This document shows positions 22,869-53,827 of a DNA stretch of 64,000 bases, piece after piece (the stretch's first letter is position 1; each line of letters starts with the position of its first letter). This stretch comes from a virus. Made by a program: the position numbers and the translations under genes. The notes beneath the pieces were generated by a model. It did no database searches. It had not been told where the DNA came from and worked only from the letters and a program-made list of their open reading frames with translations. The DNA lies in the IMG/VR virus record IMGVR_UViG_3300023440_000001, positions 62,001 through 126,000 of that record, one strand, 5' to 3'.

Positions 22869-23381
22869 ATGCAGGATCGCTATACGGAAGAAGTAAGAAG
22901 ATGGTTTTATAACTCTTTTAAGGACGTAGTTAAGATCAACTCTCTAAACGATCTACAAGTTATTAACAGAGTTTCTATGGAGTCCAACCATGCCATGATC
23001 TTTCTGGCTGTTCTAATCGGTGATGCACGCCGAGATGTTGGCACTGTGATTTATGAGATCACCAGCAATGCAGCCGTGGTCAAAGAAGTAACTCTCGTCT
23101 TTGAGTATATATTCGACCTCATGAGTGATCCAGCCCCGTTTCTAGCTGGAAATGACAAGTCGTCTGAGCTCATGGATCGAATAGCTGATACCCATCAAAA
23201 CATTGTACGCTGGGAATCCGGCTTGACAGCTTTTATTAACAGTCGACTGCTGGATAGCCAGAGTCAACCGGCTCAGAATGAGCTGGATTCTGTATTGGAC
23301 CTGCTGGGCTATCTTGGGTACTTAAAACACTATTATGAAGATCTCTACCATGAAGTCAAAACTAATCCCGGAGAGATGTAA
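22869..23381 (+). CDS. Hypothetical helical protein, 170 aa
   Basis: Weak SD (AAGGAG 12 bases upstream). Helical throughout. Its 3' end overlaps the start region of the RecA-like gene, which begins in another frame. No motif recognised. Position hints at a recombination accessory role. Confidence 0.55.
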   Translation: MQDRYTEEVRRWFYNSFKDVVKINSLNDLQVINRVSMESNHAMIFLAVLIGDARRDVGTVIYEITSNAAVVKEVTLVFEYIFDLMSDPAPFLAGNDKSSELMDRIADTHQNIVRWESGLTAFINSRLLDSQSQPAQNELDSVLDLLGYLGYLKHYYEDLYHEVKTNPGEM

Positions 23382-24708
23382 GCATTGTGTATTCTATGAA
23401 GAGAATCCTTATACGGGACTGGAAACCTGTTCCCGTAACTATCCACCTACTAGTGACTTTCGAACGGACTGCCGGGTCCGCTATTATCCGCGCGGTCCGT
23501 GGAAGTCTGCCTTTCGACCGATTCCGGACTGGCGGATGGACTTCGATTCACTATTTGGAAAGGAGATAATTGATATGAGCGGTGCTTCTTTAGAAGAGAA
23601 GATGGAACGTGCACAGGCCTTTCTCAAACAGTATTCCAAGGCTGTTGAGAAGAAAGGCTCCACAGTAGTTGCTGATTTTGCCAGTAAACTGCCGGAGAAC
23701 TACCGTTCCTTCCCCAGATTGCCCCTGGGTATTCCCAGCCTGGATCGTTTCTTTGGCGGCGGCGTACCCATGGGTGGTGTAATTACCTGTGCAGGTGATA
23801 CCAGTGTGGGTAAGACCACATTCCTGTTGCGCCTGATAGCAGCAGCCCAGAAACAGGGCAAGTTATGTTTGCTGGCTGATGCAGAAGGTACCTTTGATAC
23901 CAACTGGGCACTTAAACAGGGTGTGGATGTAGAAAAGCTGGTAGTCCTGCAGCCCGGATTACCGCCGGAGGAAGAGTTTACACCGACCACTCTGGAAGAC
24001 TACTGGAATGGTATAATCCAGGCAGCCAATTCCAATATCTTTGACTTCTTTGGCCTGGATTCGCTGGATGCCATGATTGCTCGTGGCCGGCTGCAATCCA
24101 AGAAAGGCAAAGCCCGGGATCTGGACGATGCCGACGTGGCCTTAAAGGCCCGAGTATTATCAGATGCCTATCCCCGGGTACTGGGTGCCTGCCGGGCCAA
24201 TGCCATTACCTTCTTTCAAATCGCTCAACTGAGAACCACCGGTATTGGTAGTGCCTTTGTCAAGAACGATATCTCCGGGGGTAACGCCCGGAAGTATTAT
24301 GATATTCTAACACTGCACATTCGTCGTGGCTCTAAAAGTGAGGCACCGGTTGATGGTAATAAACCACTGGGCTTCAAGTTTATCATGGAAGCTCGTAAAT
24401 CCAAGATCGGTGGAATCAGAGAAGGAGATGCTGTGGAGACTATCTTCTTCTTTGATAAGGGTTTCGACCCTGTTTATGAACTAGTGGTAGAAGCCATTGA
24501 GCGCGGTGTTATTGCCAAGAAAGGTAATGCAGCGGCCACTTTTACTACCACTTCCGGTGAAGTCCATAACATTAAAGCCGGTAAAGAGTATAAGATTGCC
24601 GCCTATATTGATGAGAATGGACTGTTTGATGACCTGCGTCTGCAGGTAACCGGTGAAGTGAGTGAAGAAGCGGAAACCGTGGATGAAACAACGGCTGAAG
24701 CTTCCTGA
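23350..24708 (+). CDS. RecA-like recombinase with Cys-rich N-terminal extension
   Basis: A strand-exchange ATPase. From the internal ATG 23575 (GGAAAGGAG upstream) a 377-aa RecA-like protein is read: Walker A GDTSVGKTT (~74-82), Walker B NIFDFFGLDSLDAM, TFFQIAQLRTT and an acidic Glu-rich C-tail typical of RecA. The same frame is open 75 codons further upstream to ATG 23350 and encodes CKHC ... C ... C (CKHCVFYEE, LETCSRNYPP, RTDCRVRYYP), a convincing zinc-type domain with no stop before the RecA part. Either a fusion, or one gene with two starts making long and short forms. Codon use is uniform across the junction. Confidence 0.8.
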   Translation: MKSKLIPERCKHCVFYEENPYTGLETCSRNYPPTSDFRTDCRVRYYPRGPWKSAFRPIPDWRMDFDSLFGKEIIDMSGASLEEKMERAQAFLKQYSKAVEKKGSTVVADFASKLPENYRSFPRLPLGIPSLDRFFGGGVPMGGVITCAGDTSVGKTTFLLRLIAAAQKQGKLCLLADAEGTFDTNWALKQGVDVEKLVVLQPGLPPEEEFTPTTLEDYWNGIIQAANSNIFDFFGLDSLDAMIARGRLQSKKGKARDLDDADVALKARVLSDAYPRVLGACRANAITFFQIAQLRTTGIGSAFVKNDISGGNARKYYDILTLHIRRGSKSEAPVDGNKPLGFKFIMEARKSKIGGIREGDAVETIFFFDKGFDPVYELVVEAIERGVIAKKGNAAATFTTTSGEVHNIKAGKEYKIAAYIDENGLFDDLRLQVTGEVSEEAETVDETTAEAS

Positions 24709-26169: not shown

Positions 26170-26487
26170 ATGCACTGCGTAGAATGTAACTCCAATAAGT
26201 TACAACGGGAGATGTTTGAAAAGACCGGTACCTGTCCATTATGTAACGGTCACCGCCACATCAGTTTCCATCGCTACGTCCAGTGGAAACTGGGTTTTGT
26301 ACTATGGCTTAATGATGATGGAAATCATGCACCGGTGGAAACTATGAAGCAACGCTGCGAAGACATGATTCTCAGGTGTTATAGAGAGTATCACAAAAAC
26401 CGACTCCCGATTATCAAACCCTATCCACTTGATCACGGGAGTCCGGTAGACGTAGTAGCATATTACATTGATCAGTTTAAGGAATAG
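26170..26487 (+). CDS. Zinc-ribbon protein, 105 aa
   Basis: ATG 26170 behind AAGGAGAGG, 18 bases after tRNA-like RNA B. N-terminal zinc ribbon CVEC ... CPLCNGHRH, then a helical domain. Ends 4 bases before the nucleotidyltransferase start. May be an RNA-binding partner for that enzyme or for the tRNA-like RNAs (inference from position only). Confidence 0.62.
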   Translation: MHCVECNSNKLQREMFEKTGTCPLCNGHRHISFHRYVQWKLGFVLWLNDDGNHAPVETMKQRCEDMILRCYREYHKNRLPIIKPYPLDHGSPVDVVAYYIDQFKE

Positions 26488-26491
26488 AGCA

Positions 26492-27679
26492 ATGAATATA
26501 AGCAACTATGTTGACTGTATGATACTCCGTGTTATTGCTGGCTCCCATGCGTACGATATGGCCACGGAACATTCCGATCTGGATGTAAAGGGTATCTTGA
26601 TACCGCCGTATGAATATCTGCTGGGTATCTACACGTTTGAACAGACCGAAGGTGATATGAAAGACGACCCCCTGGAGCAGATCGGTCTGGATCCAACACT
26701 ACTTCGTAACGGTGGTGAGTTTACTTACTATTCTCTTCAGAAGTACTTTAAGCTGGCTCGGGATTGTAATCCTTCGATTCTGGAACTCCTGTTTTCAGAT
26801 CCAAAGCATTATATATGGGATGGAATTACACCTGAGAACAGGCGGTTGGGTGAGCTGCTGATTCGTAATCGTCGTCTGTTTCTATCTCAGAAGGTACGCT
26901 TTACTTATACCGGCTATGCACACGCCCAGCTGAAACGCATTAAAGGTCACAATAAATGGTTGACCAATCCACAGCCCGAAGAGAAGCCCCGACCGGTAAA
27001 CTTCATGAAGTTCTATCCCCTCAATATACATGAACAGCCAGCACTGTTTTATACCGCTCACATTGCCCTGGAAGATGATCCGGATTTTGAGAAGTGGATA
27101 TTGAAGTATGGTTTACAATCAATGGGTGCTAAACCAATTCCCGGCACCGACAACAAAGCCTTCTTTCTGTACCAGAAGGGCAGGGGAATAGTCGATTCCT
27201 CAGGCGCTCTGTTATCTGACTATTCCTATAACTACGATCCGGATAGCCCTGTCATTGGTATCCTGGTCTTCCAGCGAGACGAGTATCGCTCTCAGCTGAA
27301 GAAGTGGAAGGAATACTGGGATTGGGTACGTAATCGTAACCCGGCCAGAAGTGAGCTTGAGAAGAAGTATGGCTACGATACTAAGCACGCTGCCCATCTT
27401 ATCCGGCTATTGCGCACCGGTTACGAGCTAATGAGTACCGGCGAACTCCATGTTCTACGCCCGGATGCCGAAGAGCTTCTGGCTATCCGCAACGGTGCCT
27501 GGAGTTACAAGCAGCTGATTGATCATGCCGAAGAGACGGAGCAGAAGATCATCGAATTATATGACAGCCCATACTGTCCGCTTCCGATGAAGCCGGACAT
27601 CAAGAAGATTAACCAGCTCTATTTGGAGATGATAGAGCCGATAATCAGCAGGAGATTGAGCAATGAAGGTTCTTATTAG
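26492..27679 (+). CDS. Predicted nucleotidyltransferase (YcgL/COG3541-like), 395 aa
   Basis: Pol-beta-type nucleotidyltransferase signature near the N-terminus: VIAGSHAYDMATEHSDLDVKG gives G-S ... D-x-D, the metal-binding aspartates. Matches the large 'predicted nucleotidyltransferase' family found in many phages (COG3541-like), whose natural acceptor is unknown. The remaining ~330 residues contain KRIKGHNKWLTNP and HAAHLIRLLRTGYELMSTGEL, also typical of the family. SD AAGGA. Next to two tRNA-like RNAs, so an RNA acceptor is conceivable. Confidence 0.78.
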   Translation: MNISNYVDCMILRVIAGSHAYDMATEHSDLDVKGILIPPYEYLLGIYTFEQTEGDMKDDPLEQIGLDPTLLRNGGEFTYYSLQKYFKLARDCNPSILELLFSDPKHYIWDGITPENRRLGELLIRNRRLFLSQKVRFTYTGYAHAQLKRIKGHNKWLTNPQPEEKPRPVNFMKFYPLNIHEQPALFYTAHIALEDDPDFEKWILKYGLQSMGAKPIPGTDNKAFFLYQKGRGIVDSSGALLSDYSYNYDPDSPVIGILVFQRDEYRSQLKKWKEYWDWVRNRNPARSELEKKYGYDTKHAAHLIRLLRTGYELMSTGELHVLRPDAEELLAIRNGAWSYKQLIDHAEETEQKIIELYDSPYCPLPMKPDIKKINQLYLEMIEPIISRRLSNEGSY

Positions 27680-28101: not shown

Positions 28102-28129
28102 GCTTAATTCAAATCATAAGGAGTAATCT

Positions 28130-28585
28130 ATGAGACCAGCTCCCTATACGTTTTACAAAGGTAAGGCCGCCATGCGGTTGAGTATCATTCCCCCGAAAGA
28201 GGTCCAGAAAGGACAGTATTCTAATACCGATCCGGGAATGATCCTAATGGAAATCGCTCCGGCAAAGGGTAAACAGTCCTATGATTGGGACAATAAGATC
28301 GTGTTCTCCCTGAGCCCGGCGGAAGTTGCCACAATTGAAGTGAACCGGCTGATGAAGAAAGAGACCAGCCTGTTTCATGATCCGAATATGAAGTCGGACA
28401 AACAGGGCCAGGTTACCAAAAGCTTAAAGATCAGCCAGACCGACAGCGGTGGCTACATGTTCACCCTGTTTGAAACCAACAACGGCAACAAACACCATGT
28501 CTCCATCATTCTTTCAGCTGCCGAATACTATTTGTTTCGCATGCTGGTAGAGAATGGTGTGTTAAAGACATTAGCCTGGGTATGA
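28130..28585 (+). CDS. Whirly-like single-stranded DNA-binding protein, 151 aa
   Basis: Strong, ordered match to the Whirly fold known best from plant ssDNA-binding proteins: YTFYKGKAAMRL at the start (YKGKAAL in plants), GMILMEIAPA, then YDW, then FSLSPAEV, then LFHDPNMKSDKQGQVTKSL (FFHDP...GxVxKxL in plants), and a final AEYYLFRMLV helix. Whirlies form tetramers that protect ssDNA and limit illegitimate recombination. In a phage it may act beside SSB in recombination-dependent replication. Length equals one Whirly domain. SD AAGGAG; followed by two tiny membrane-protein genes. Confidence 0.8.
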   Translation: MRPAPYTFYKGKAAMRLSIIPPKEVQKGQYSNTDPGMILMEIAPAKGKQSYDWDNKIVFSLSPAEVATIEVNRLMKKETSLFHDPNMKSDKQGQVTKSLKISQTDSGGYMFTLFETNNGNKHHVSIILSAAEYYLFRMLVENGVLKTLAWV

Positions 28586-28977: not shown

Positions 28978-30165
28978 ATGGACTTCAGTAGTGTATTCAA
29001 AAGAGATTACCGATCCTTTGCTCTGGGCATGTTCTCTGATATTATACAGGAAGAACTGCAACAGAATGGTAAAGTAAACGTTCTGGATCTCCCATCCAGC
29101 AATCTTATCCGGGAGTTGCGTTACTGGACAGATGTTGTCGGGCTAACCATTAATCACTATGTAGCTTTCGAGATAAATGACGAGATTGAAAAGGAGATTA
29201 TCAAGCAGAAGCATGTTGCTCGCCAGTATATAAATAGTGATCAGGTAGCCCAAATACTGGTGAACCCTTATGACTCTCAGGTGCCCGGTAAGGACCGTCT
29301 TCCTAAAGGTGTGCGCTTGCCAATGAAGGACATCATGGATCTTCGCGAGCGCCGAAGTCGGAAGCGCTTTACCATTCTCAACTTTGATTTGTGTGGCGCC
29401 CTGGGCGTCGGTGAAATGGGTATTATTGCTGATATATGTAGTATCCATGCTACCGATAAGTTTGTACTTCTGATTACTTCATCATTGCGTACCCGAGGCG
29501 GACTGGAAGTCATTGATCGTCTGTTTACTAATATGAAGGATGTTTTGTTACCCGCAGCTGGTATCGAAGTGATCCGGACTTATGGCCCAAAGACATACCA
29601 GGGCGGTACCGACGGTAATAACGGTACCCCGATGGTATTCTATGCATTGGCCTGTGAGAAGGCCATTAAGAATTGTCGAAGCCTGGATGTTCCTGATAAT
29701 AAACCAGACGTGAGGATTACTCTATCAGACGATAATGATCGTGAATCTACCGTTGAAGATCGAAGTAATGCTAAAACGGATTTAGCAGATATTATATCAA
29801 AGCTCCCATCATTGGAGTCGGTACCACCAATTCCAGATGAACTCCAGAACTTCATTCCCAGGAGGTATAATCTTATCTGGACTCTGAATTGGTTGAAGGA
29901 TAATCCATACTATACTGGTCAGCATTTAATGAAGTTGTTGAAGACAGATGATGTTAAGTATGTTAGCTCTCTAATTCGTCGGCTTCGCCGTCAGGGATTG
30001 ATTTCAGACTCTTCTCGTGCACTGTCTAAGGAGCTATTTGATTTGAATGGTAATAAAGCGAAAGCAGGTAAGGGTGGCTTTCGTATATCCTATGCCGAGT
30101 TAACCAGTAAGGGTCACTTACTTTTAGAGCAGTTTAAAAGTGCTTTGGATTACTTTACAGAATAA
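28978..30165 (+). CDS. Rossmann-like domain plus winged-helix protein, 395 aa
   Basis: Residues ~35-220 look like a Rossmann/SAM-methyltransferase-like core: NVLDLPSS, HYVAFEIND (acidic strand end), FTILNFDLCGALG, DKFVLLITSSLRTRGG. The usual glycine-rich loop is poor, so activity is uncertain. Residues ~290-390 fit a winged helix (YTGQHLMKLLKTDDVKYVSS, LIRRLRRQGLISDSSR, then wing). Poor SD (GAGGT). Paired with the ParB-like gene downstream between a terminator and promoter-like copy 4; may be a DNA-binding modification or regulatory pair. Confidence 0.5.
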   Translation: MDFSSVFKRDYRSFALGMFSDIIQEELQQNGKVNVLDLPSSNLIRELRYWTDVVGLTINHYVAFEINDEIEKEIIKQKHVARQYINSDQVAQILVNPYDSQVPGKDRLPKGVRLPMKDIMDLRERRSRKRFTILNFDLCGALGVGEMGIIADICSIHATDKFVLLITSSLRTRGGLEVIDRLFTNMKDVLLPAAGIEVIRTYGPKTYQGGTDGNNGTPMVFYALACEKAIKNCRSLDVPDNKPDVRITLSDDNDRESTVEDRSNAKTDLADIISKLPSLESVPPIPDELQNFIPRRYNLIWTLNWLKDNPYYTGQHLMKLLKTDDVKYVSSLIRRLRRQGLISDSSRALSKELFDLNGNKAKAGKGGFRISYAELTSKGHLLLEQFKSALDYFTE

Positions 30166-31607: not shown

Positions 31608-31952
31608 ATGGCAGTATTTGATCTGAGAACTATCTATTCCGGTAAGATCGAAGTTACCCGGAAGGAGCTAAAGGACATCAACAGAATCAGTCGTCAGGTT
31701 CACGACAACATCAAGGAAGTGTTCCTTGCTTTTCTGGAGAATCGTGAACAGGACTATGTAAGGCAGAAGATTGCAGAGCTGGCCGTTCATGAAGCTGAAT
31801 TGTCCAGTCTGGAAACCGAGATGCTTGGTAGTAATACCGACTCGATAGTAATCGAGAAGGTAAAGATGACTCTGAGTGCTGTCCGAAGAGCACAACAACG
31901 GCTGGAGAGAATCCTGAGCTCTCTGCAAAACGAAGCTAATAACGCAACCTAA
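31608..31952 (+). CDS. Coiled-coil protein, 114 aa
   Basis: SD GAGGAGG. Helical with heptad-like spacing across residues 20-105 (VRRAQQRLERILSSLQNEAN). Directly upstream of the DNA polymerase, so it may be a polymerase accessory; only position supports this. Confidence 0.58.
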   Translation: MAVFDLRTIYSGKIEVTRKELKDINRISRQVHDNIKEVFLAFLENREQDYVRQKIAELAVHEAELSSLETEMLGSNTDSIVIEKVKMTLSAVRRAQQRLERILSSLQNEANNAT

Positions 31953-31966
31953 TGGGAGTGTCTGCG

Positions 31967-34774
31967 ATGAACTGGCAAGTAAACGATTCCAGTAAGCTGC
32001 GAGCGTTTCGAGAGAGTTTGACTGAGTGCTACTTATGCCCCCTTTACTCTGAACTGGGAAAGACTGCTGGCAGTGCCAAAGGTCTGGCCCCGGTCGTGAG
32101 TAGAGGAGAAGGTCGGGTTATGTTTATTGGTATGGCACCTTCTAATGTAGAACATAACACTGGCAAACCATTTGGTGAGGCACTTGGTGAGACGTTGGCA
32201 GAACTGATGAAGAAGCATGTGGGCCTGTTGATTGATGTGGATACATATATGACCAACCTGATCAAGTGTAATCCTTATACCAAACCGACGAATATGAAAC
32301 GTGGTCATATGCGGAACTGTTCGATTCACCTGGGAAAGGAACTGGAACTGGTGGACCCGGTAATTGTGGTGTTCATGGGTAAGGATATCTTTAATGCTAT
32401 TGGCTACGCAGATGAGCTTCCTGGTATTGGAGTGCCTTTCCAGGGAACGCTCTTTGGTAAGAAGCGCTGGATGTACGTAATGAATAATCCCGGTGTGATT
32501 ACCAAGAGTATGTCCCAGCGAAAGAGCTTTATTACTCAGCTGCGTAATCTTGCCAGGTGGTTGAAAGAGCACACGACCTTTTATCAGGATAAAGGCATGG
32601 CACCACCAGAGTTCGTGGAGTATGCCGAGCCCAGATATGTGCTGATAAATACCATTGAAAAGGCCCGCAACATGGTCAAATGGTTTAAACGCAGCGGTGC
32701 TAAATACATGGCTCTGGATACCGAAACTACCGGGCTGAATCTGTTTGACCCGAAATGGTACGTGGTTGGTGTGTCACTGTCCATTGATGAACGAGTTGGT
32801 TATTATCTACCCATTGGTCATCGTAGTCGTCCCAGCTCGCTGATTAAGAAGGATATTCAGCAGTTGACTAAAGAAGAGCTGAAGAAGATACTGGAGTACC
32901 TGCTCTTCGATCTAAAGCTCATCCCGATCTTTCATAACTACGCCTATGATTATCGGGTGTTGAAAAAGCTGGATATTCAGGTGGATAAGCTGGATCCGGA
33001 TAACAGTATCTGGTATCATGATACCATGATCCTGAGTTACCTGGAGAACGAGAACGACACGCTGGGCTTAAAAGACCTGACCTTTCGGCATTTCGGTATC
33101 CAGGCGGACAAGTTTAAAGACGTGGCTGAACATAGTAAGTTTCAGTACGTGGATCTGGAAAAGGCCACTGCTTATGCTGCGGCTGATGCAGTAAATACAC
33201 TGCGTCTGTTCAACCGGGCACGTAAGGTTGTTCATAAGGAAAGCATCACCAAGACCGGTGGAAAGCTGCTGGAACGTATCTATCCGGTTGAGTTGAAGAC
33301 TGCCCGTATCATGGCCGATGCAATTGATCTCGGTCTGGCTATTGATCTCGATTATCTGAAAGCGTTAAGACTCCGTCTGCTGAAGGAAGAGCGCGAGTTA
33401 TATGATAAACTGGATAGCTTCAATAACATTATTGATCACAGCAGCACCTATCAGCTGGACAAGTTAATGGGAAGTCTGTTGGATAATGCGTCCCGACAGA
33501 GTTATGAAGATCAGTACGGCTGGGCGGCTGACGAAGATCATCTGAAAACACTGCGAGACTTTGTGAAGAAGTCCTATGAATCCAGTAAGTTCCGCTGGAC
33601 ACCCGAGAAGCTCGATGACTATATCAAGACACTCCTGGTCTGGCGTCGAGTCAATAAGATGCTCAGTACCTACGTAGACGCTCTGATCGAGAAGCATGTG
33701 GTAGATGAAAGTGGTACCCCAATCATTCACGGTTCCTTTAAGACAATCGGAACCACCAGCGGTCGCATGTCTTCTCAGGATCCCAACCTGCAGAACCTGC
33801 CACGGGAAGCGCCCAAACCACCTAAGGTCTGTCAATACTGTGGTCATGAGACTGTTACTCTGGTAGATGGCTCCGGCCATGAGACGGTTGTCAATTGGTA
33901 TGACAGCGTGGATTCTACCGGCGGTGTTTTCACCTGTGCCAAATGCGGTAAGCAAACTTCTAACTATCAGGTGGACATTCGGCGCGCTTTCGTGGCCAGA
34001 CCGAATAAATGCTTTCTAACTTGTGATTGGGATGCGATGGAGCTTAAGGTCGCTGCTGCTGTCTCAGGTGATAAACGCCTATTGGAAATCATGGAAGGGC
34101 AGGTGAGAGAACCTGATAATCCTAACTATGACATGCACCGGGTAACAGCAGCCGGAATCTTCGGGTGCAAACCAGAAGAAGTGACTAAGGAACAGAGGCA
34201 GGCGGCTAAACCGGTAGGATTTGGATGTCTCTATCTTATAACCGAAGTTGGTCTGGCTAATAACCTGCGCACCATGGCCGGTATTGAAGTTACCGTAGAA
34301 GAAGCCAAAGAGTGGATCAAGAACTTCTTTGACACCTATCCAGGTCTACTCGAGAACTGGATCCATCCCGGCCGTTGGAAGCTGAAAACCGAAGGGTATA
34401 TCACCCATCCCTATGGTCGTATCAGACGTGTGTCACGAGATCCGTCTGAAGCAGAGATCCGTAGTGCCTTGAACTTTACCATTCAGGGATGGTGCGCTTC
34501 CATCATGAAAGAATCGCTGGTCAAAATCGATGAAGCTTTTCAGGGCGATCCGGGGATCAATATCGTTACTGTTATTCATGATGAAATCGTTGTAGAGTGT
34601 CCCATAGAAAAGGCTCCGGAAGTCGCTCAGGTGGTGAAAGAAGCTATGAACATTAAGATCAAAGATAAGGCTGAAGTTCAACTGACGGCGACCCCGGAGA
34701 TCAAGTTTAATCTGAGTAAGGCAGCCAAGACCTATTCGGTTGAAGAGTTTGAGAAAGCGTTCTTGAAGAAGTAG
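31967..34774 (+). CDS. polA: Family A DNA polymerase with N-terminal UDG-like domain
   Basis: 935 residues; ATG 31967 behind GGGAG. Domains in order: UDG-like (~1-200; CYLCPLYSELGKT, FIGMAPSN, NLIKCNPYTKP). 3'-5' exonuclease (~235-430; LDTETTGL, IPIFHNYAYDY, YHDTMI, AAADAV). Polymerase: GTTSGRMSSQDPNLQNLPR, a zinc-ribbon insertion of ~45 residues (CQYCG ... CAKCG, ~617-660), motif A CDWDAMELK (~685), O-helix RQAAKPVGFGCLYLI with the Phe that favours dNTP over ddNTP, and motif C VIHDEIVVE (~870). The main replicative enzyme, high fidelity by its DTET exonuclease. UDG-polymerase fusion is known in SPO1; the zinc insertion is unusual. Confidence 0.95.
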   Translation: MNWQVNDSSKLRAFRESLTECYLCPLYSELGKTAGSAKGLAPVVSRGEGRVMFIGMAPSNVEHNTGKPFGEALGETLAELMKKHVGLLIDVDTYMTNLIKCNPYTKPTNMKRGHMRNCSIHLGKELELVDPVIVVFMGKDIFNAIGYADELPGIGVPFQGTLFGKKRWMYVMNNPGVITKSMSQRKSFITQLRNLARWLKEHTTFYQDKGMAPPEFVEYAEPRYVLINTIEKARNMVKWFKRSGAKYMALDTETTGLNLFDPKWYVVGVSLSIDERVGYYLPIGHRSRPSSLIKKDIQQLTKEELKKILEYLLFDLKLIPIFHNYAYDYRVLKKLDIQVDKLDPDNSIWYHDTMILSYLENENDTLGLKDLTFRHFGIQADKFKDVAEHSKFQYVDLEKATAYAAADAVNTLRLFNRARKVVHKESITKTGGKLLERIYPVELKTARIMADAIDLGLAIDLDYLKALRLRLLKEERELYDKLDSFNNIIDHSSTYQLDKLMGSLLDNASRQSYEDQYGWAADEDHLKTLRDFVKKSYESSKFRWTPEKLDDYIKTLLVWRRVNKMLSTYVDALIEKHVVDESGTPIIHGSFKTIGTTSGRMSSQDPNLQNLPREAPKPPKVCQYCGHETVTLVDGSGHETVVNWYDSVDSTGGVFTCAKCGKQTSNYQVDIRRAFVARPNKCFLTCDWDAMELKVAAAVSGDKRLLEIMEGQVREPDNPNYDMHRVTAAGIFGCKPEEVTKEQRQAAKPVGFGCLYLITEVGLANNLRTMAGIEVTVEEAKEWIKNFFDTYPGLLENWIHPGRWKLKTEGYITHPYGRIRRVSRDPSEAEIRSALNFTIQGWCASIMKESLVKIDEAFQGDPGINIVTVIHDEIVVECPIEKAPEVAQVVKEAMNIKIKDKAEVQLTATPEIKFNLSKAAKTYSVEEFEKAFLKK

Positions 34775-39676: not shown

Positions 39677-40405
39677 ATGGATGTCGATACCTGGGTACAA
39701 CAAGTCTCTGGCGGCAGGAGCCGCATCAGTCGCGAAGAAGAGCGACGACTGATTAACCTTTATAAGAATGGTACACCTGAGGAAAGAGAGTATGCTAAAG
39801 CAGAACTTCTCGCCTACAATGTCTTACCAATAGTAAATATCGCCCTGGAAGTCTATCATTCGTTTCCCAATGCCTATCGGATGGATGTACATGATCTAAT
39901 TCATCGTGGAGTGGAGGTATTTCTGGATAAGCTGGATAAGTTTGATCCGGAAAAGGCTCGCCTGATTACTTTCTATTCCCGTGATATAAAGACACAAATG
40001 CAGCGCATGGTCATGCGTTATGCAACCGCTATTCCTCAGGGATCCGTATTCCTGCAGCATATAGCAGGTAAACGGTCCCGTATCTACGGTCAGCTGATGC
40101 AGGAATTGGAGCGTGAACCCACAGACGATGAAGTCGCCGAGGTATTGGGAATCAAAACATCTACACTACAAATGGCAGATCGTTATACCAGTATCAAGTT
40201 TCATAGTTTGCCCGGTCTGGAGTTTGAAGACGCAAGTGGTTCTTACTCGCTGGAAGCCCGCAAGTTATTGCTTATCCTGCGTGATAAGCTGGACTTTCTG
40301 GATGATGAAGAGTTCGAGCGTTTCGTTGATAAACTCATATCCGGAGAAACTCCAGATGCGGAGCTGGTTGAAAAGACTCTGAACAAACTACGTGGAGGCA
40401 ACTAG
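39677..40405 (+). CDS. RNA polymerase sigma factor (sigma-70 family, regions 2-3)
   Basis: 242 residues. Region 2 is visible (~48-120): NVLPIVNIALEVYHSFPNAY, DVHDLIHRGVEVFLDKLDKF, FDPEKARLITFYSRDIKTQM. A region-3-like stretch follows, GQLMQELEREPTDDEVAEVLGI (~150-172). The C-terminal ~60 residues are acidic and do not look like a normal region 4. Likely redirects host RNA polymerase to phage promoters; the GTCTAC-N13-ATTCAC elements are obvious candidates. The nearest strong SD (GGTGGAG) is 15 bases away and just ahead of an out-of-frame ATG at 39667, so translation may be weak or coupled. Confidence 0.8.
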   Translation: MDVDTWVQQVSGGRSRISREEERRLINLYKNGTPEEREYAKAELLAYNVLPIVNIALEVYHSFPNAYRMDVHDLIHRGVEVFLDKLDKFDPEKARLITFYSRDIKTQMQRMVMRYATAIPQGSVFLQHIAGKRSRIYGQLMQELEREPTDDEVAEVLGIKTSTLQMADRYTSIKFHSLPGLEFEDASGSYSLEARKLLLILRDKLDFLDDEEFERFVDKLISGETPDAELVEKTLNKLRGGN

Positions 40406-40406
40406 A

Positions 40407-41675
40407 ATGGATGTACGTCAACAAATACGTCTCCGACTAAGAGATTATATCGCTCAGATGGGTATAGAAATCGATGAGCATGGCTACGCTCACTGTCCGT
40501 TACATAACGACTGCAAGACCAAGAGCTTTACCATTGCCGGTCCGAATGGTGGTAACAAATGGAAGTGCTTTGGTTGTGATAAGGGGGGTGATATCTTTAA
40601 CCTGGCACATGAACTGGAAGGTCTACCCTTAAGTGGTTCTGAATTTGCTACAGTCACCATTCCCACACTTGCCAAACGTTTCGGCATTCCTATTACAGTA
40701 AGGGTTCAGGATGATGAAACTCATCAACGTAACAAGCTGTTGGAGTTGTTTAACTTTGTCAAAGATCAGCTTGTTATCGATGATGTAGTTAAATCCTTTG
40801 CCGAAGATCGAGCTCTGGATATTACGCTCTTTAAGCGATTGGGTGTAGGACGAATACCCAGTTACCGATCTCTGATGACTCGTTTGAAGAAGCGCTTCAA
40901 GCAGGAGATTATCACTCTGTCCAAGATTGATCATCGGGATCTGTTTACCGATCGGATTCTGTTTACCCTGCACAATAGAAATGGCCAGCCAATCGGCTTC
41001 GGTGGTCGTTATATCGGTACCGATCCGGAAGCCAAGAAGTATGTGAACAGCTTTAACAACCCGCTCTATAATAAGTCACAATATCTTTACAATCTGCACC
41101 TGACCAAAACCGATCAGCCGCTATATGTTGTTGAAGGATACACGGATGTATTGCGGTTGATACAGAATGGTATTAACAATGTGGTTGGTGTTTGTGGCAC
41201 CGCCGTATCTGATGATCATATCAAGACACTAAAGTCCTTTAAGGAAATCATACTGGTATTGGATGGCGATAAAGCTGGTATCAGCCGGATGGATAAGGTG
41301 CGCAAACAGTTACCAAATGCTACCTGTAAGTTGATTCCTATGGATATGGATCCGGATAGTTACATTCGCAACTTTGGTATCGATTACTTTCTGCGTCTGG
41401 AAAACCTGGATTCGCTGGCCTGGGAGATTACTACCCATAAGTTCCATCAGAAGCTACATGATGTCGAAGTATTCCTGAACAGGATTGCCGATACATTACC
41501 ATTCAAACACAAGGAGTATCTGAAGAAACTTGCCCAGTCCAGTGGTGTGGCATTTATCGAGTTGCAAGACAGTTTGAATGCGCTGTTGAACCAACGCAAC
41601 TGGCGGGTATTGGATCAGCTGTTAAAAAGTAAGAAGCAGATTGCTTCCTTGATTATTCAGATTAAAACCGATTAG
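40407..41675 (+). CDS. dnaG: DnaG-type DNA primase
   Basis: 422 residues. Makes RNA primers for lagging-strand synthesis. CHC2 zinc domain at the N-terminus: HCPLHNDCKTKSF ... KWKCFGCDKGGDIFN (~29-60). Catalytic core with LFTDRILFTLHNRNGQPIGFGG and the TOPRIM motif LYVVEGYTDVLRL (~240), then EIILVLDGDKAG. The C-terminal helicase-interaction domain is short. ATG 40407 follows GGAGG and sits just past the sigma gene stop. No DnaB helicase is seen in this window. Confidence 0.93.
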   Translation: MDVRQQIRLRLRDYIAQMGIEIDEHGYAHCPLHNDCKTKSFTIAGPNGGNKWKCFGCDKGGDIFNLAHELEGLPLSGSEFATVTIPTLAKRFGIPITVRVQDDETHQRNKLLELFNFVKDQLVIDDVVKSFAEDRALDITLFKRLGVGRIPSYRSLMTRLKKRFKQEIITLSKIDHRDLFTDRILFTLHNRNGQPIGFGGRYIGTDPEAKKYVNSFNNPLYNKSQYLYNLHLTKTDQPLYVVEGYTDVLRLIQNGINNVVGVCGTAVSDDHIKTLKSFKEIILVLDGDKAGISRMDKVRKQLPNATCKLIPMDMDPDSYIRNFGIDYFLRLENLDSLAWEITTHKFHQKLHDVEVFLNRIADTLPFKHKEYLKKLAQSSGVAFIELQDSLNALLNQRNWRVLDQLLKSKKQIASLIIQIKTD

Positions 41676-42088: not shown

Positions 42089-42733
42089 GTGTCTGTTAAG
42101 CCGCTAAATGGTATGCGACTGTTACTTAATAAGTTGAAACGGCGCATACCCAAAGATCTGATTAAGCAGCGTAAGCAGGGTAAAGAACTGCTGGACTATA
42201 TTGAATGGACAACGGCTGCTGATATCCTGGATGATGTAGCAGTAACCTGGCAGAACTATGTTAAAGACGTTCATGTCGTCGGAGACAAGCTCATCATCAT
42301 TGGTGGAGTAAAAGTCAAAGACCCGGAAACCGGAGAATGGCTTACCCGTGAGAATGTTGGCATCGAGAAGATATCGACTGAATCCTACGGCGATGTCGCT
42401 TCGAATGCCTTTGCCATGATGTTCAAACGCTGTGGCGTTCTGTGGGGTCCAGGCCGAGAGCTGTATAAAGCACCAGACTATGCTCCCCATAAACTTGCCA
42501 GCATGGAACAGGTTCGGGAGATTCTGCGGCTTATGGAGGAGGGCAAGATTCCAGCTGAATACCATGATCCGATCATCAAACTGATTAACAGTGGTGAACT
42601 GGAAGCATCTCGTGCTCAGGCAGCCATAGCCAAGTTTGGCGGTAATGGTCATAGTGATGGTAATGGTTCTCAAGACGAGCCTGAAAAGAAACCTGCCAGG
42701 AAACCCAAAGCCGTCAAAACGTCCAAATCATAA
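42089..42733 (+). CDS. Rad52-like single-strand annealing protein
   Basis: 214 residues, GTG start after AGGAGG. The core (~30-135) reads YIEWTTAADILDDVAVTWQN, strands VGDKLIIIGGVKV, then IEKISTESYGDVASNAFAMM and FKRCGVLWGPGRELY, matching the beta-beta-alpha core of Rad52/Sak-type annealing proteins (W in strand 1 and A-x3-FKRC..x..G..LY at the end). Tail ~150-214 is low-complexity, basic and likely disordered, as in other phage annealers. Works with the RecA-like protein and SSB in recombination. Confidence 0.75.
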   Translation: MSVKPLNGMRLLLNKLKRRIPKDLIKQRKQGKELLDYIEWTTAADILDDVAVTWQNYVKDVHVVGDKLIIIGGVKVKDPETGEWLTRENVGIEKISTESYGDVASNAFAMMFKRCGVLWGPGRELYKAPDYAPHKLASMEQVREILRLMEEGKIPAEYHDPIIKLINSGELEASRAQAAIAKFGGNGHSDGNGSQDEPEKKPARKPKAVKTSKS

Positions 42734-51544: not shown

Positions 51545-53827
51545 ATGATCTTCATTGGTATTATAAAAGCCATAAGAGCCCGCCGCGGTGCCTGGCAGAA
51601 AGTGGTTCTACATGTTACGGAAACTGGTCCCAGTCAAAAGGATCTCGAAGAGACGGATCAGATCTGGGATATGGTTGGTGAGTTTATGGCCAGCGTCGGT
51701 GATAAGGTTATCGTTGAAGGTGAATTAAAGAACGTGCGTTCTTATGGCTATCAAATACACGCCCGTAAAGTAAAGATGCTCTCCGGATTTACTGATACTG
51801 AAGAGCAATTGCATCAGTTCCTGGTCAAACATGTGAGTGGTGTCGGCCCTAAAATGGCCGACGCTCTTATCAATGAATATGGAGTAGAAGATCTGATTCG
51901 TCTGCTGGATAGTTGCAGTCCACGTATTATTGAAGATATACCAGGCATCGGTATTAAAACGGCTGAACAGATATGGGAGACCTGGACCCGGGAACGCTTC
52001 AAATGGGATCCCTGGAAGTATCTGACCCGTATCGGTATCCGGGATCTGAATCATATTCGTAAGATCATCGGTCAATACGGTCGGGATACGGAGAAGATCG
52101 TATCTAAATATCCATACCGATTGCTGGAAGTGGAAGGACTATCCTTTCGTACTGTTGATGCCATAGCCATTAAAGCGGGTGTTGATCCACTGTCTCCAAT
52201 TCGTATCATGTCCGCTATTGTATACGCTCTCAATCGTCAGAGTGATTTCGGTCATACCTACTATGAAAAAGAGCAGCTGAAGGGGATAGTGGAATATCTA
52301 CTGGATATGGATGAACTGGATGATGAATTGTATGACAGATGTCTGTTTCGATTGGAGCGTAGTGAGCGGATTGTTACTGAAGCTGATAAGGTCTTTTCAG
52401 CTCGTATATACATGGTGGAGAAGTCTGTTGCGAGTGTGATGATTGAGCTAAAGTATGGTAATACGATAGTTATTGATGATAAGTCGGTTGATGACTTTAT
52501 CAAGCTCTACCAAACCAGGCATGAGATGGAGTTTACCAAAACACAGCAGCGGGCCATATACCGGGCTGCCAATACAGGTGTAATGGTTTTAACCGGTGGT
52601 CCCGGAACCGGTAAGACCTTTACTGTTGGTGCCATGGTAGAGCTGTTTCGTAGTTACGGAAACGATGTTGTATTGTGTTCGTCGACCGGTCGCAGTGCGC
52701 GGCGTATAAAAGAGTCAACCGGGTATGAAGCGCACACTATTCATCGTCTGCTGAAGGTAATTCCCAACGGTAAAGGTGGGACTATGTTTGAACATGATGA
52801 TCGTAATCCACTGGATGGTGATGTCTTTATTGTGGATGAAGTTTCCATGGTCGATCTGGAGCTGATGCATCACCTGCTAAAAGCTATACCGGTTGGCAAG
52901 AAACTGATTATGATAGGTGATAAGGATCAGCTTCCCAGTATTGGTCTTGGTAGTGTACTGAATGATTGCATTGGGTCTGGCCGCATACCGGTAGTTGAAC
53001 TACAAACAGTATTCCGTCAGAGTGAGACCAGTGACATTGTAATTAATGCCAATAAGGTCAATATGGGTAAGATTGATATCGTTGAAGGTGGTAAGGACTT
53101 CTGGTGGGTAAAGGATGTGGATGAAGATATGATCCTTAAAGTCATTACCGAGCGTATACCCAAACGATTTGGTATTCCTATGGAAGACATTAAGGTTATT
53201 ACTCCCTATCGTCGGGAATATGCGGAAGTAAATGTAAAGCAGCTAAACCGACGATTGCAGGAGATAGCCAATCCGGAAAAGGAGATTGAAGTTAAGAACT
53301 ATGATGGTACGATTATCCGGAAACCCAACGGTATAGTTTATAAGGGCGTTACCTTTCGTGTGGGTGATCCGGTTATGCAGATGGAGAATGACTATGTGAA
53401 GCTGATCTTTAATGGCGATATCGGAACTATTGTCAGTGTGGATCAGGATGAAGACGGTCGTTGTGCGCTGTTGGTTGATTTCGGCGATGATCGTGGAATT
53501 AGATCATATATTGATTCTGATATTGACCACCTGGAGCTGGCCTATGCCATGACCGTACATAAGAGTCAGGGAAGTGAATATCCGGCAGTGGTGATCATAC
53601 TTCCCGAATTGACCGAAAAGACCAGTGGTATGCTAAAGCGTAATATGCTTTATACTGCTATTACCAGAGCACAGAAACTCTGCGTACTGTTTGCATCTGA
53701 GGCAAGCTTTCGGAAGTGTGTGAATGATGATTCATATGATAAGCGGATGACCATGCTTGCCAGATGGTTAGTAGACACCGACAGTAAAGTAACCAGAGGT
53801 CGTCGGCGTACTTCAAAAGTAGCTTAA
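51545..53827 (+). CDS. recD2: RecD2-like superfamily 1B DNA helicase
   Basis: 760 residues, 5'-3' helicase of the RecD2/TraA type. Order: OB-like N-terminal region, helix-hairpin-helix segment (VSGVGPKMADALI; IEDIPGIGIKTAEQIW), Walker A GGPGTGKTFTVGAM (~351), VLCSSTGRSARRIKE, VDEVSMVDLELMH (Walker B DE), IGDKDQLPSIGLGSVL, TVFRQSE, ITPYRR, and motif VI AYAMTVHKSQGSEYPAV ... LYTAITRA. Length matches RecD2 (~720-760). In phages such enzymes act in replication restart or recombination. It may substitute in part for the missing replicative helicase. Confidence 0.92.
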   Translation: MIFIGIIKAIRARRGAWQKVVLHVTETGPSQKDLEETDQIWDMVGEFMASVGDKVIVEGELKNVRSYGYQIHARKVKMLSGFTDTEEQLHQFLVKHVSGVGPKMADALINEYGVEDLIRLLDSCSPRIIEDIPGIGIKTAEQIWETWTRERFKWDPWKYLTRIGIRDLNHIRKIIGQYGRDTEKIVSKYPYRLLEVEGLSFRTVDAIAIKAGVDPLSPIRIMSAIVYALNRQSDFGHTYYEKEQLKGIVEYLLDMDELDDELYDRCLFRLERSERIVTEADKVFSARIYMVEKSVASVMIELKYGNTIVIDDKSVDDFIKLYQTRHEMEFTKTQQRAIYRAANTGVMVLTGGPGTGKTFTVGAMVELFRSYGNDVVLCSSTGRSARRIKESTGYEAHTIHRLLKVIPNGKGGTMFEHDDRNPLDGDVFIVDEVSMVDLELMHHLLKAIPVGKKLIMIGDKDQLPSIGLGSVLNDCIGSGRIPVVELQTVFRQSETSDIVINANKVNMGKIDIVEGGKDFWWVKDVDEDMILKVITERIPKRFGIPMEDIKVITPYRREYAEVNVKQLNRRLQEIANPEKEIEVKNYDGTIIRKPNGIVYKGVTFRVGDPVMQMENDYVKLIFNGDIGTIVSVDQDEDGRCALLVDFGDDRGIRSYIDSDIDHLELAYAMTVHKSQGSEYPAVVIILPELTEKTSGMLKRNMLYTAITRAQKLCVLFASEASFRKCVNDDSYDKRMTMLARWLVDTDSKVTRGRRRTSKVA

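What the first reader, a model, noticed from the sequence alone, without database searches (positions are those of the whole stretch)
28130..28585. Phage protein with a clear Whirly-family signature
The 151-aa product keeps, in order, YKGKAA, YDW, FSLS, FHDPNMKSD, GQV.KSL and the closing AEYYLF helix, the set that defines plant Whirly ssDNA-binding proteins. Whirlies are usually discussed as plant organelle proteins, so a compact single-domain phage member could speak to the origin of the fold and gives this phage a second type of ssDNA coat besides SSB.
Basis: partly seen in the sequence, partly recalled or inferred. Interest (0 to 1): 0.76.

Follow-up and report, generated by a model that had tools for sequence, protein, structure and literature searches.

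The report
This bacterial virus carries a small gene for a Whirly protein, a DNA-coating protein that reviews describe as unique to plants; at least twelve other virus contigs carry relatives, nearly all alongside RecA, so the plant protein may have deep links to phage DNA maintenance.

Summary
ORF 28130-28585 (+, 151 aa) matches Pfam Whirly PF08536 at E 1.4e-31 (109.6 bits, cut-off 23). Its AlphaFold2 model (pLDDT 91) superposes on plant Whirly crystal structures (Z 20.5, 2.0 A over 150 residues). KGKAA(M), YDW and FHDP are present. The record is a contractile-tailed phage that also encodes a canonical SSB, RecA, family-A polymerase, clamp and primase. Codon usage is native, so this is neither plant contamination nor a recent plant gene.

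I found 12 further viral contigs with Whirlies over the Pfam cut-off. Of the 13 records, 12 carry a RecA, three a classical SSB and seven a cryptic OB-fold SSB. No PHROG or NCBIfam model covers the family, and none of 50,697 phage records matched. One uncultured-phage UniProt entry is already auto-named Whirly, while reviews call Whirlies plant-specific.

Most likely function: a second, basic ssDNA coat supporting recombination-linked replication, distinct from SSB. Binding, oligomerisation and biological role are inferred. Plant Whirlies form one clade among deep viral lineages, but the root and this protein's position are unresolved, so a phage origin of plant Whirlies is possible, not shown.

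The parts
28130..28585 (+). Whirly (PF08536) gene, 151 aa, predicted pI 9.3, 17 kDa
   Evidence: Pfam E 1.4e-31; AF2 pLDDT 91; Z 20.5 to AtWHY1 4koo; pI and codon usage
28118..28123 (+). AAGGAG ribosome-binding site, 6 bases before the ATG
   Evidence: read directly
28157..28174 (+). KGKAAM motif (residues 10-15); residue K12 corresponds to the lysine needed for 24-mer assembly in plants
   Evidence: alignments; role of the lysine from PMC6963530
28280..28288 (+). YDW, invariant in all 13 viral and 4 plant sequences aligned
28373..28399 (+). FHDPNMKSD motif
4536..4961 (+). canonical OB-fold SSB with acidic DDDDGVPF tail (ORF listed from GTG 4524)
   Evidence: PF00436 E 5.7e-27; only one in the record
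23335..24708 (+). RecA-family recombinase
   Evidence: PF00154 E 8.4e-25
42089..42733 (+). probable Erf-like ssDNA-annealing protein (weak match)
   Evidence: phrog_1097 E 8e-4, phrog_14970 E 1.6e-11
31952..34774 (+). uracil-DNA-glycosylase/exonuclease/family-A DNA polymerase fusion
   Evidence: PF03167, PF01612, PF00476
21240..22406 (+). sliding clamp
   Evidence: phrog_947 E 8e-11
40392..41675 (+). DnaG-type primase
   Evidence: PF08275, Toprim
51545..53827 (+). RecD2-type helicase
   Evidence: PF13245, PF14490, PF18335
53828..55021 (+). clamp loader
   Evidence: phrog_5846 E 2.8e-26

Best explanation
The gene encodes a true Whirly-family protein of a contractile-tailed phage. Shown by computation: Whirly sequence family and fold, a native phage gene, and a separate OB-fold SSB, RecA and replisome in the same genome. 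Inferred from the family: it binds ssDNA with little sequence specificity, assembles as tetramers (perhaps larger shells through the KGKAAM lysine), and coats ssDNA exposed during phage replication and RecA-linked recombination. There it would limit illegitimate microhomology annealing and protect or hand over ssDNA, a role different from the exchangeable, partner-recruiting SSB.
For: Pfam 109.6 bits. PDB sequence hits are only plant Whirlies below E 0.5. AF2 model is 4 strands-helix-4 strands-helix, Z 18.7-20.5 to seven Whirly entries. Basic pI 9.3. Canonical SSB present. RecA in the window and in 11 of 12 other Whirly-bearing viral records, against 1,708 of 50,697 phage records matching a RecA query by tblastn. 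A cryptic OB-fold SSB in 7 of those records and PF00436 SSBs in two more. An RNase H over the Pfam cut-off is the next gene in two relatives. Plant WHY1/WHY3 are reported with RecA1 and RNase H1 in plastids, and plant Whirlies suppress microhomology-driven rearrangement (PMC10909546; PMC6963530).
Against: No binding, oligomer or phenotype data. In the window the neighbours within about 3 kb (27703, 28978, 30175) have no assignable function and were not found beside other viral Whirlies, so neighbourhood does not fix its role. RecA co-occurrence is partly shared ancestry (8 of 12 records are one lineage), and the base rate was measured by a different method. The protein lacks the acidic/aromatic C-terminal tail of plant Whirlies.
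Confidence: 0.8

Rival explanations
1. It is mainly a transcription regulator that binds promoter ssDNA, as plant WHY1 was first described, switching phage or host genes.
For: Pfam names the family 'Whirly transcription factor', after the PR-10a promoter work on plants (PMC9070903).
Against: Plant reviews stress organelle genome maintenance; viral relatives sit beside RNase H, 3'-5' exonuclease, an SSB and a ClpP-type protease and genomes carry RecA. No regulator gene was recognised next to it.
Confidence: 0.1
2. It is an RNA chaperone or RNA-annealing protein, like the structurally similar trypanosome MRP1/MRP2.
For: MRP1/MRP2 are the next best fold matches, Z 14.8, 2.3 A over 124 residues; plant Whirlies are reported to bind RNA too (PMC9070903). 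The phage has an RNA-repair-type nucleotidyltransferase at 26468-27679 (PF10127).
Against: 6% identity to MRPs and no sequence match to them, versus about 30% identity and Z 20 to ssDNA-binding Whirlies.
Confidence: 0.07
3. It is a recent acquisition from a plant or alga, or eukaryotic contamination.
For: Of the 13 viral proteins it scores best against the Pfam profile (109.6 bits versus 51-77) and keeps KGKAA, reported as largely an angiosperm or higher-plant feature.
Against: At most 39% identity to plant proteins; no intron or transit peptide; codon score inside the phage range; bacterial ribosome-binding site; embedded in phage genes; other deep viral lineages carry the family.
Confidence: 0.03

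Closest known systems
Plant Whirly proteins: StWhy1/p24 (1l3a), StWhy2 (3n1h), AtWHY1 (4koo), AtWHY2 (4kop), AtWHY3 (4koq)
   Same: Same Pfam family, same fold end to end (Z 18.7-20.5), KGKAA(M/L), YDW, FHDP, closing helix ending in W.
   Different: 28-39% identity; no transit peptide; no C-terminal tail after the closing W150; encoded in a phage beside a bacterial-type replisome.
A0A6J5NR37 'Whirly transcription factor' [uncultured Caudovirales phage] (BFVD/UniProt)
   Same: Compact 141-aa viral Whirly, Foldseek E 2.2e-11, 31% identity.
   Different: Automatic name in an uncultured phage record; no paper found in the library that discusses it.
Viral Whirlies found here (L001, L009, L012-L016, L028, L031, L036, L037, L040)
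   Same: All pass the Pfam Whirly cut-off, 51-77 bits; YK, YDW and KI invariant.
   Different: 25-34% identity to the window protein; eight carry a 20-40 aa insertion after the YKG motif and sit in a conserved gene neighbourhood absent from the window phage.
Bacterial/phage OB-fold SSB (PF00436)
   Same: Presumed shared ligand, ssDNA; one is encoded by the same phage.
   Different: Unrelated fold and sequence; window Whirly lacks the SSB acidic tip.
Trypanosome MRP1/MRP2 and PUR-domain proteins
   Same: Same fold class (MRP Z 14.8, PURA Z 8.9).
   Different: 6-12% identity, no sequence-level match, different ligands.

Membership tests
Whirly (PF08536) | Profile score above the curated cut-off over the whole domain | tested here: met
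   109.6 bits vs 23, profile 2-134/136; independently found by six-frame search
Whirly (PF08536) | Fold: two antiparallel four-stranded sheets with helices, C-terminal helix | tested here: met
   AF2 pLDDT 91, E-E-E-E-H-E-E-E-E-H; Z 20.5, rmsd 2.0, 150 aligned
Whirly (PF08536) | KGKAAL motif (KGKAAM accepted in rice WHY1) | tested here: met
   KGKAAM at residues 10-15; a review says algal members lack it, so it is typical but not strictly defining
Whirly (PF08536) | ssDNA binding | not testable with these tools
   needs a binding assay
Whirly (PF08536) | Tetramer and 24-mer assembly | not testable with these tools
   only single-chain prediction was available
Plant-type Whirly accessory parts (outside the PF08536 domain, so not required for family membership) | Acidic/aromatic C-terminal tail and organelle transit peptide | tested here: not met
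   protein starts 8 residues before YKGKAA and ends one residue after W150; it is therefore not filed as a plant-type Whirly
OB-fold SSB (PF00436) | PF00436 profile match | tested here: not met
   no PF00436 hit for this protein; the phage's SSB is a different gene
MRP1/MRP2 | Sequence-level match | tested here: not met
   no match in PDB sequence search at E<=10, only fold similarity

The most novel reading that the evidence does not exclude
Whirlies are an old phage ssDNA-coating family that works in a RecA-SSB(-RNase H) recombination module, and the ancestor of green plants took its organelle Whirly from such a phage, as organelles are thought to have done with other phage-type replication and transcription enzymes.
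Probability: 0.35. Interest if true: 0.85.

Novelty: new member of a known kind. Interest (0 to 1): 0.6.

Why it matters
Reviews call Whirlies plant-specific (PMC9070903), unique to plants (PMC6963530) and born in the ancestor of Chloroplastida (PMC11135702). Phage Whirlies in several deep lineages make that statement incomplete and give the family a non-plant reservoir, so the origin of a central organelle DNA-maintenance protein becomes testable by phylogeny. They also provide small, tail-less, single-domain proteins for asking what a Whirly does beside an SSB and RecA, without multi-compartment plant biology.

Tried and rejected
Plant contamination or recent plant transfer: rejected on codon usage, identity and context. 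Placing the window protein as sister to plants: the best tree does so, but with support 50/17, and its branch is long (1.56), so not claimed. Chromosomal bacterial Whirlies: two pattern scans of 85k genomes found none; a profile survey of bacterial genomes was not possible because no prokaryote handle could be obtained. Searches of phage and plasmid records with the window protein, and of phage records with three relatives, gave no match. No close kin of the phage by its polymerase (best phage hits about 30% identity; no IMG/VR match). My visual impression that window 28978-30165 resembles a gene near L037's Whirly was not supported by profile search. The neighbour families U (about 100 aa, upstream of Whirly in 10 of 12 other loci) and D190 were not found in the window phage. 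phrog_2 terminase was found only in G004 and G010 among relatives; the other records are taken as viral on IMG/VR's word plus phage-type genes. The original Whirly structure papers were not in the library, so contact residues were not compared.

Full report
WHAT IS THERE. Pfam-A gives one significant family, Whirly PF08536, E 1.4e-31, 109.6 bits against a curated cut-off of 23, covering the whole profile. Sequence search of the PDB gives only plant Whirlies below E 0.5, best AtWHY2 4kop at 1.4e-20.

FOLD. With the 13-member viral alignment AlphaFold2 gave mean pLDDT 91, pTM 0.85, and the order of four strands, helix, four strands, helix. The 16 best Foldseek matches in the PDB are all plant Whirly chains (E 1.5e-12 to 5e-11, TM up to 0.88). 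VIA-align gives Z 20.5 with 2.0 A over 150 residues to AtWHY1; trypanosome MRP1/MRP2 follow at Z 14.8 and PUR proteins near 9. The only strong viral-structure match is A0A6J5NR37, named 'Whirly transcription factor' in an uncultured Caudovirales phage.

THE GENOME. The window lies at 62001-126000 of a 136,294-base IMG/VR virus record. Outside the window the record has a terminase, portal, major head protein and tail sheath, so it is a contractile-tailed phage. Inside are a canonical SSB, RecA, UDG-exonuclease-PolA fusion, primase and RecD2 helicase, and a clamp, clamp loader and weak Erf-like annealing match. The Whirly gene has native codon usage; its GC3 (0.61) and that of the SSB (0.64) are the highest of 25 genes compared.

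HOW WIDESPREAD. No match in 50,697 phage records or 72,556 plasmids, and pattern scans of bacterial and archaeal genomes found none. Scans of IMG/VR with successive alignments gave 12 other contigs; every one passes the Pfam cut-off with 51-77 bits. The scans need exact peptide patterns, so this undercounts. No PHROG matches the window protein or four tested relatives convincingly, and no NCBIfam model matches the window protein or three relatives.

THE RELATIVES. Eight contigs form a supported group (97/100) with a 20-40 residue insertion after YKG. They share neighbouring gene families: an unnamed protein of about 100 aa directly upstream of Whirly (also in L016 and L037; 10 of 12 loci), and, in most of them, a ClpP-type protease, a Ycf46-like AAA protein, and DUF1257 and DUF2997 proteins (family names tested on L012 only). 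A protein of about 115 aa one or two genes downstream had no Pfam or PHROG match, but its model (pLDDT 85) matches bacterial and organelle SSBs in Foldseek (best E 1.8e-4, TM about 0.6). A profile of it hits 7 of 12 records. Two further records have PF00436 SSBs. So at least 10 of 13 Whirly viruses, the window included, also carry an OB-fold SSB. RecA (PF00154) is in 11 of 12 relatives plus the window. For scale, a RecA query matches 1,708 of 50,697 phage records by tblastn at 1e-3, 241 of them over at least 80% of the query. The methods differ and eight of the viruses are kin, so this is suggestive, not a test. In two relatives the next gene is an RNase H over the Pfam cut-off; in three others a 3'-5' exonuclease follows within two genes.

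MECHANISM. Shown by computation: family, fold, native phage gene, coexistence with SSB and RecA. From published work on the family: plant Whirlies bind ssDNA with nanomolar affinity, form tetramers and 24-mers, and need the second lysine of KGKAAL for the 24-mer and for suppressing microhomology-mediated rearrangement (PMC6963530). WHY1/WHY3 are reported with RecA1 and RNase H1 in chloroplasts (PMC10909546). Inference: the phage protein coats longer-lived ssDNA at forks or recombination intermediates, guards against wrong annealing, and works beside SSB and RecA. K12 of KGKAAM aligns with the key plant lysine; by eye a lysine is also kept there in L016 and L037 but not in the eight-member group, where an insertion follows YKG, so higher-order assembly may differ among viral lineages.

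ORIGIN. The tree (4 plant, 13 viral) puts plants in one group (99/99) among viral lineages; the window protein's place is unresolved (with plants 50/17) and its branch is long. There is no root. Plant-to-phage transfer in recent time is unlikely; ancient phage-to-plant transfer, the reverse, or a common bacterial source all remain possible. Algal and bryophyte sequences, which would be decisive, were not available.

LITERATURE. The reviews and study consulted state that Whirlies are plant-specific or arose in green plants (PMC9070903; PMC6963530; PMC11135702). Searches for Whirly with phage, Caudovirales, horizontal transfer and similar terms found no paper whose title or abstract describes a phage Whirly. 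The library holds only open-licence papers, so absence is not proof.

VERDICT. A confirmed Whirly, a new member of a known family in an unexpected host, with automatic database precedent but apparently no discussion in print.

Noticed in passing
L012:7866-8213 and homologues in L013, L028, L031, L036, L016, L009: Cryptic OB-fold SSB family of about 115 aa without Pfam or PHROG match, found by structure prediction.
   Followed up: partly
L036:6594-6884 and the homologous gene directly upstream of Whirly in ten loci: Unnamed protein family of about 100 aa (YGNLGYxLGASI motif) almost always directly upstream of viral Whirlies; possible functional partner.
   Followed up: partly
L037:8811-9395 and homologues in L015, L016, L028, L031, L009, L040: Protein of about 190 aa, no Pfam or PHROG match, recurring within a few kb of viral Whirlies.
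   Followed up: partly
L012:10070-12504 and equivalents: Ycf46-like AAA protein with DUF1257 (Ycf35-like) and DUF2997 genes, a set that recalls cyanobacteria and plastids, beside viral Whirly (the Ycf names are from memory).
   Followed up: no
G007:C1:21295-22539 and G008:C1:34475-35829: RecA genes split by an inserted stretch; in G007 the 522-aa frame stays open (intein-like), in G008 the two pieces are reported in open frames of different length.
   Followed up: no
window 31952-34774: Uracil-DNA glycosylase domain fused to the N-terminus of exonuclease-DNA polymerase A.
   Followed up: no
window 26468-27679: RlaP-like RNA-repair nucleotidyltransferase (PF10127, phrog_388), two genes upstream of Whirly.
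   Followed up: no
window 4536-4961 and 28130-28585: The SSB and Whirly genes have the highest GC3 (0.64 and 0.61) of 25 phage genes compared, perhaps a mark of high expression.
   Followed up: no
L005:5724-6590: ParA-like partition protein in a contractile-tailed phage genome; possible plasmid-like maintenance.
   Followed up: no
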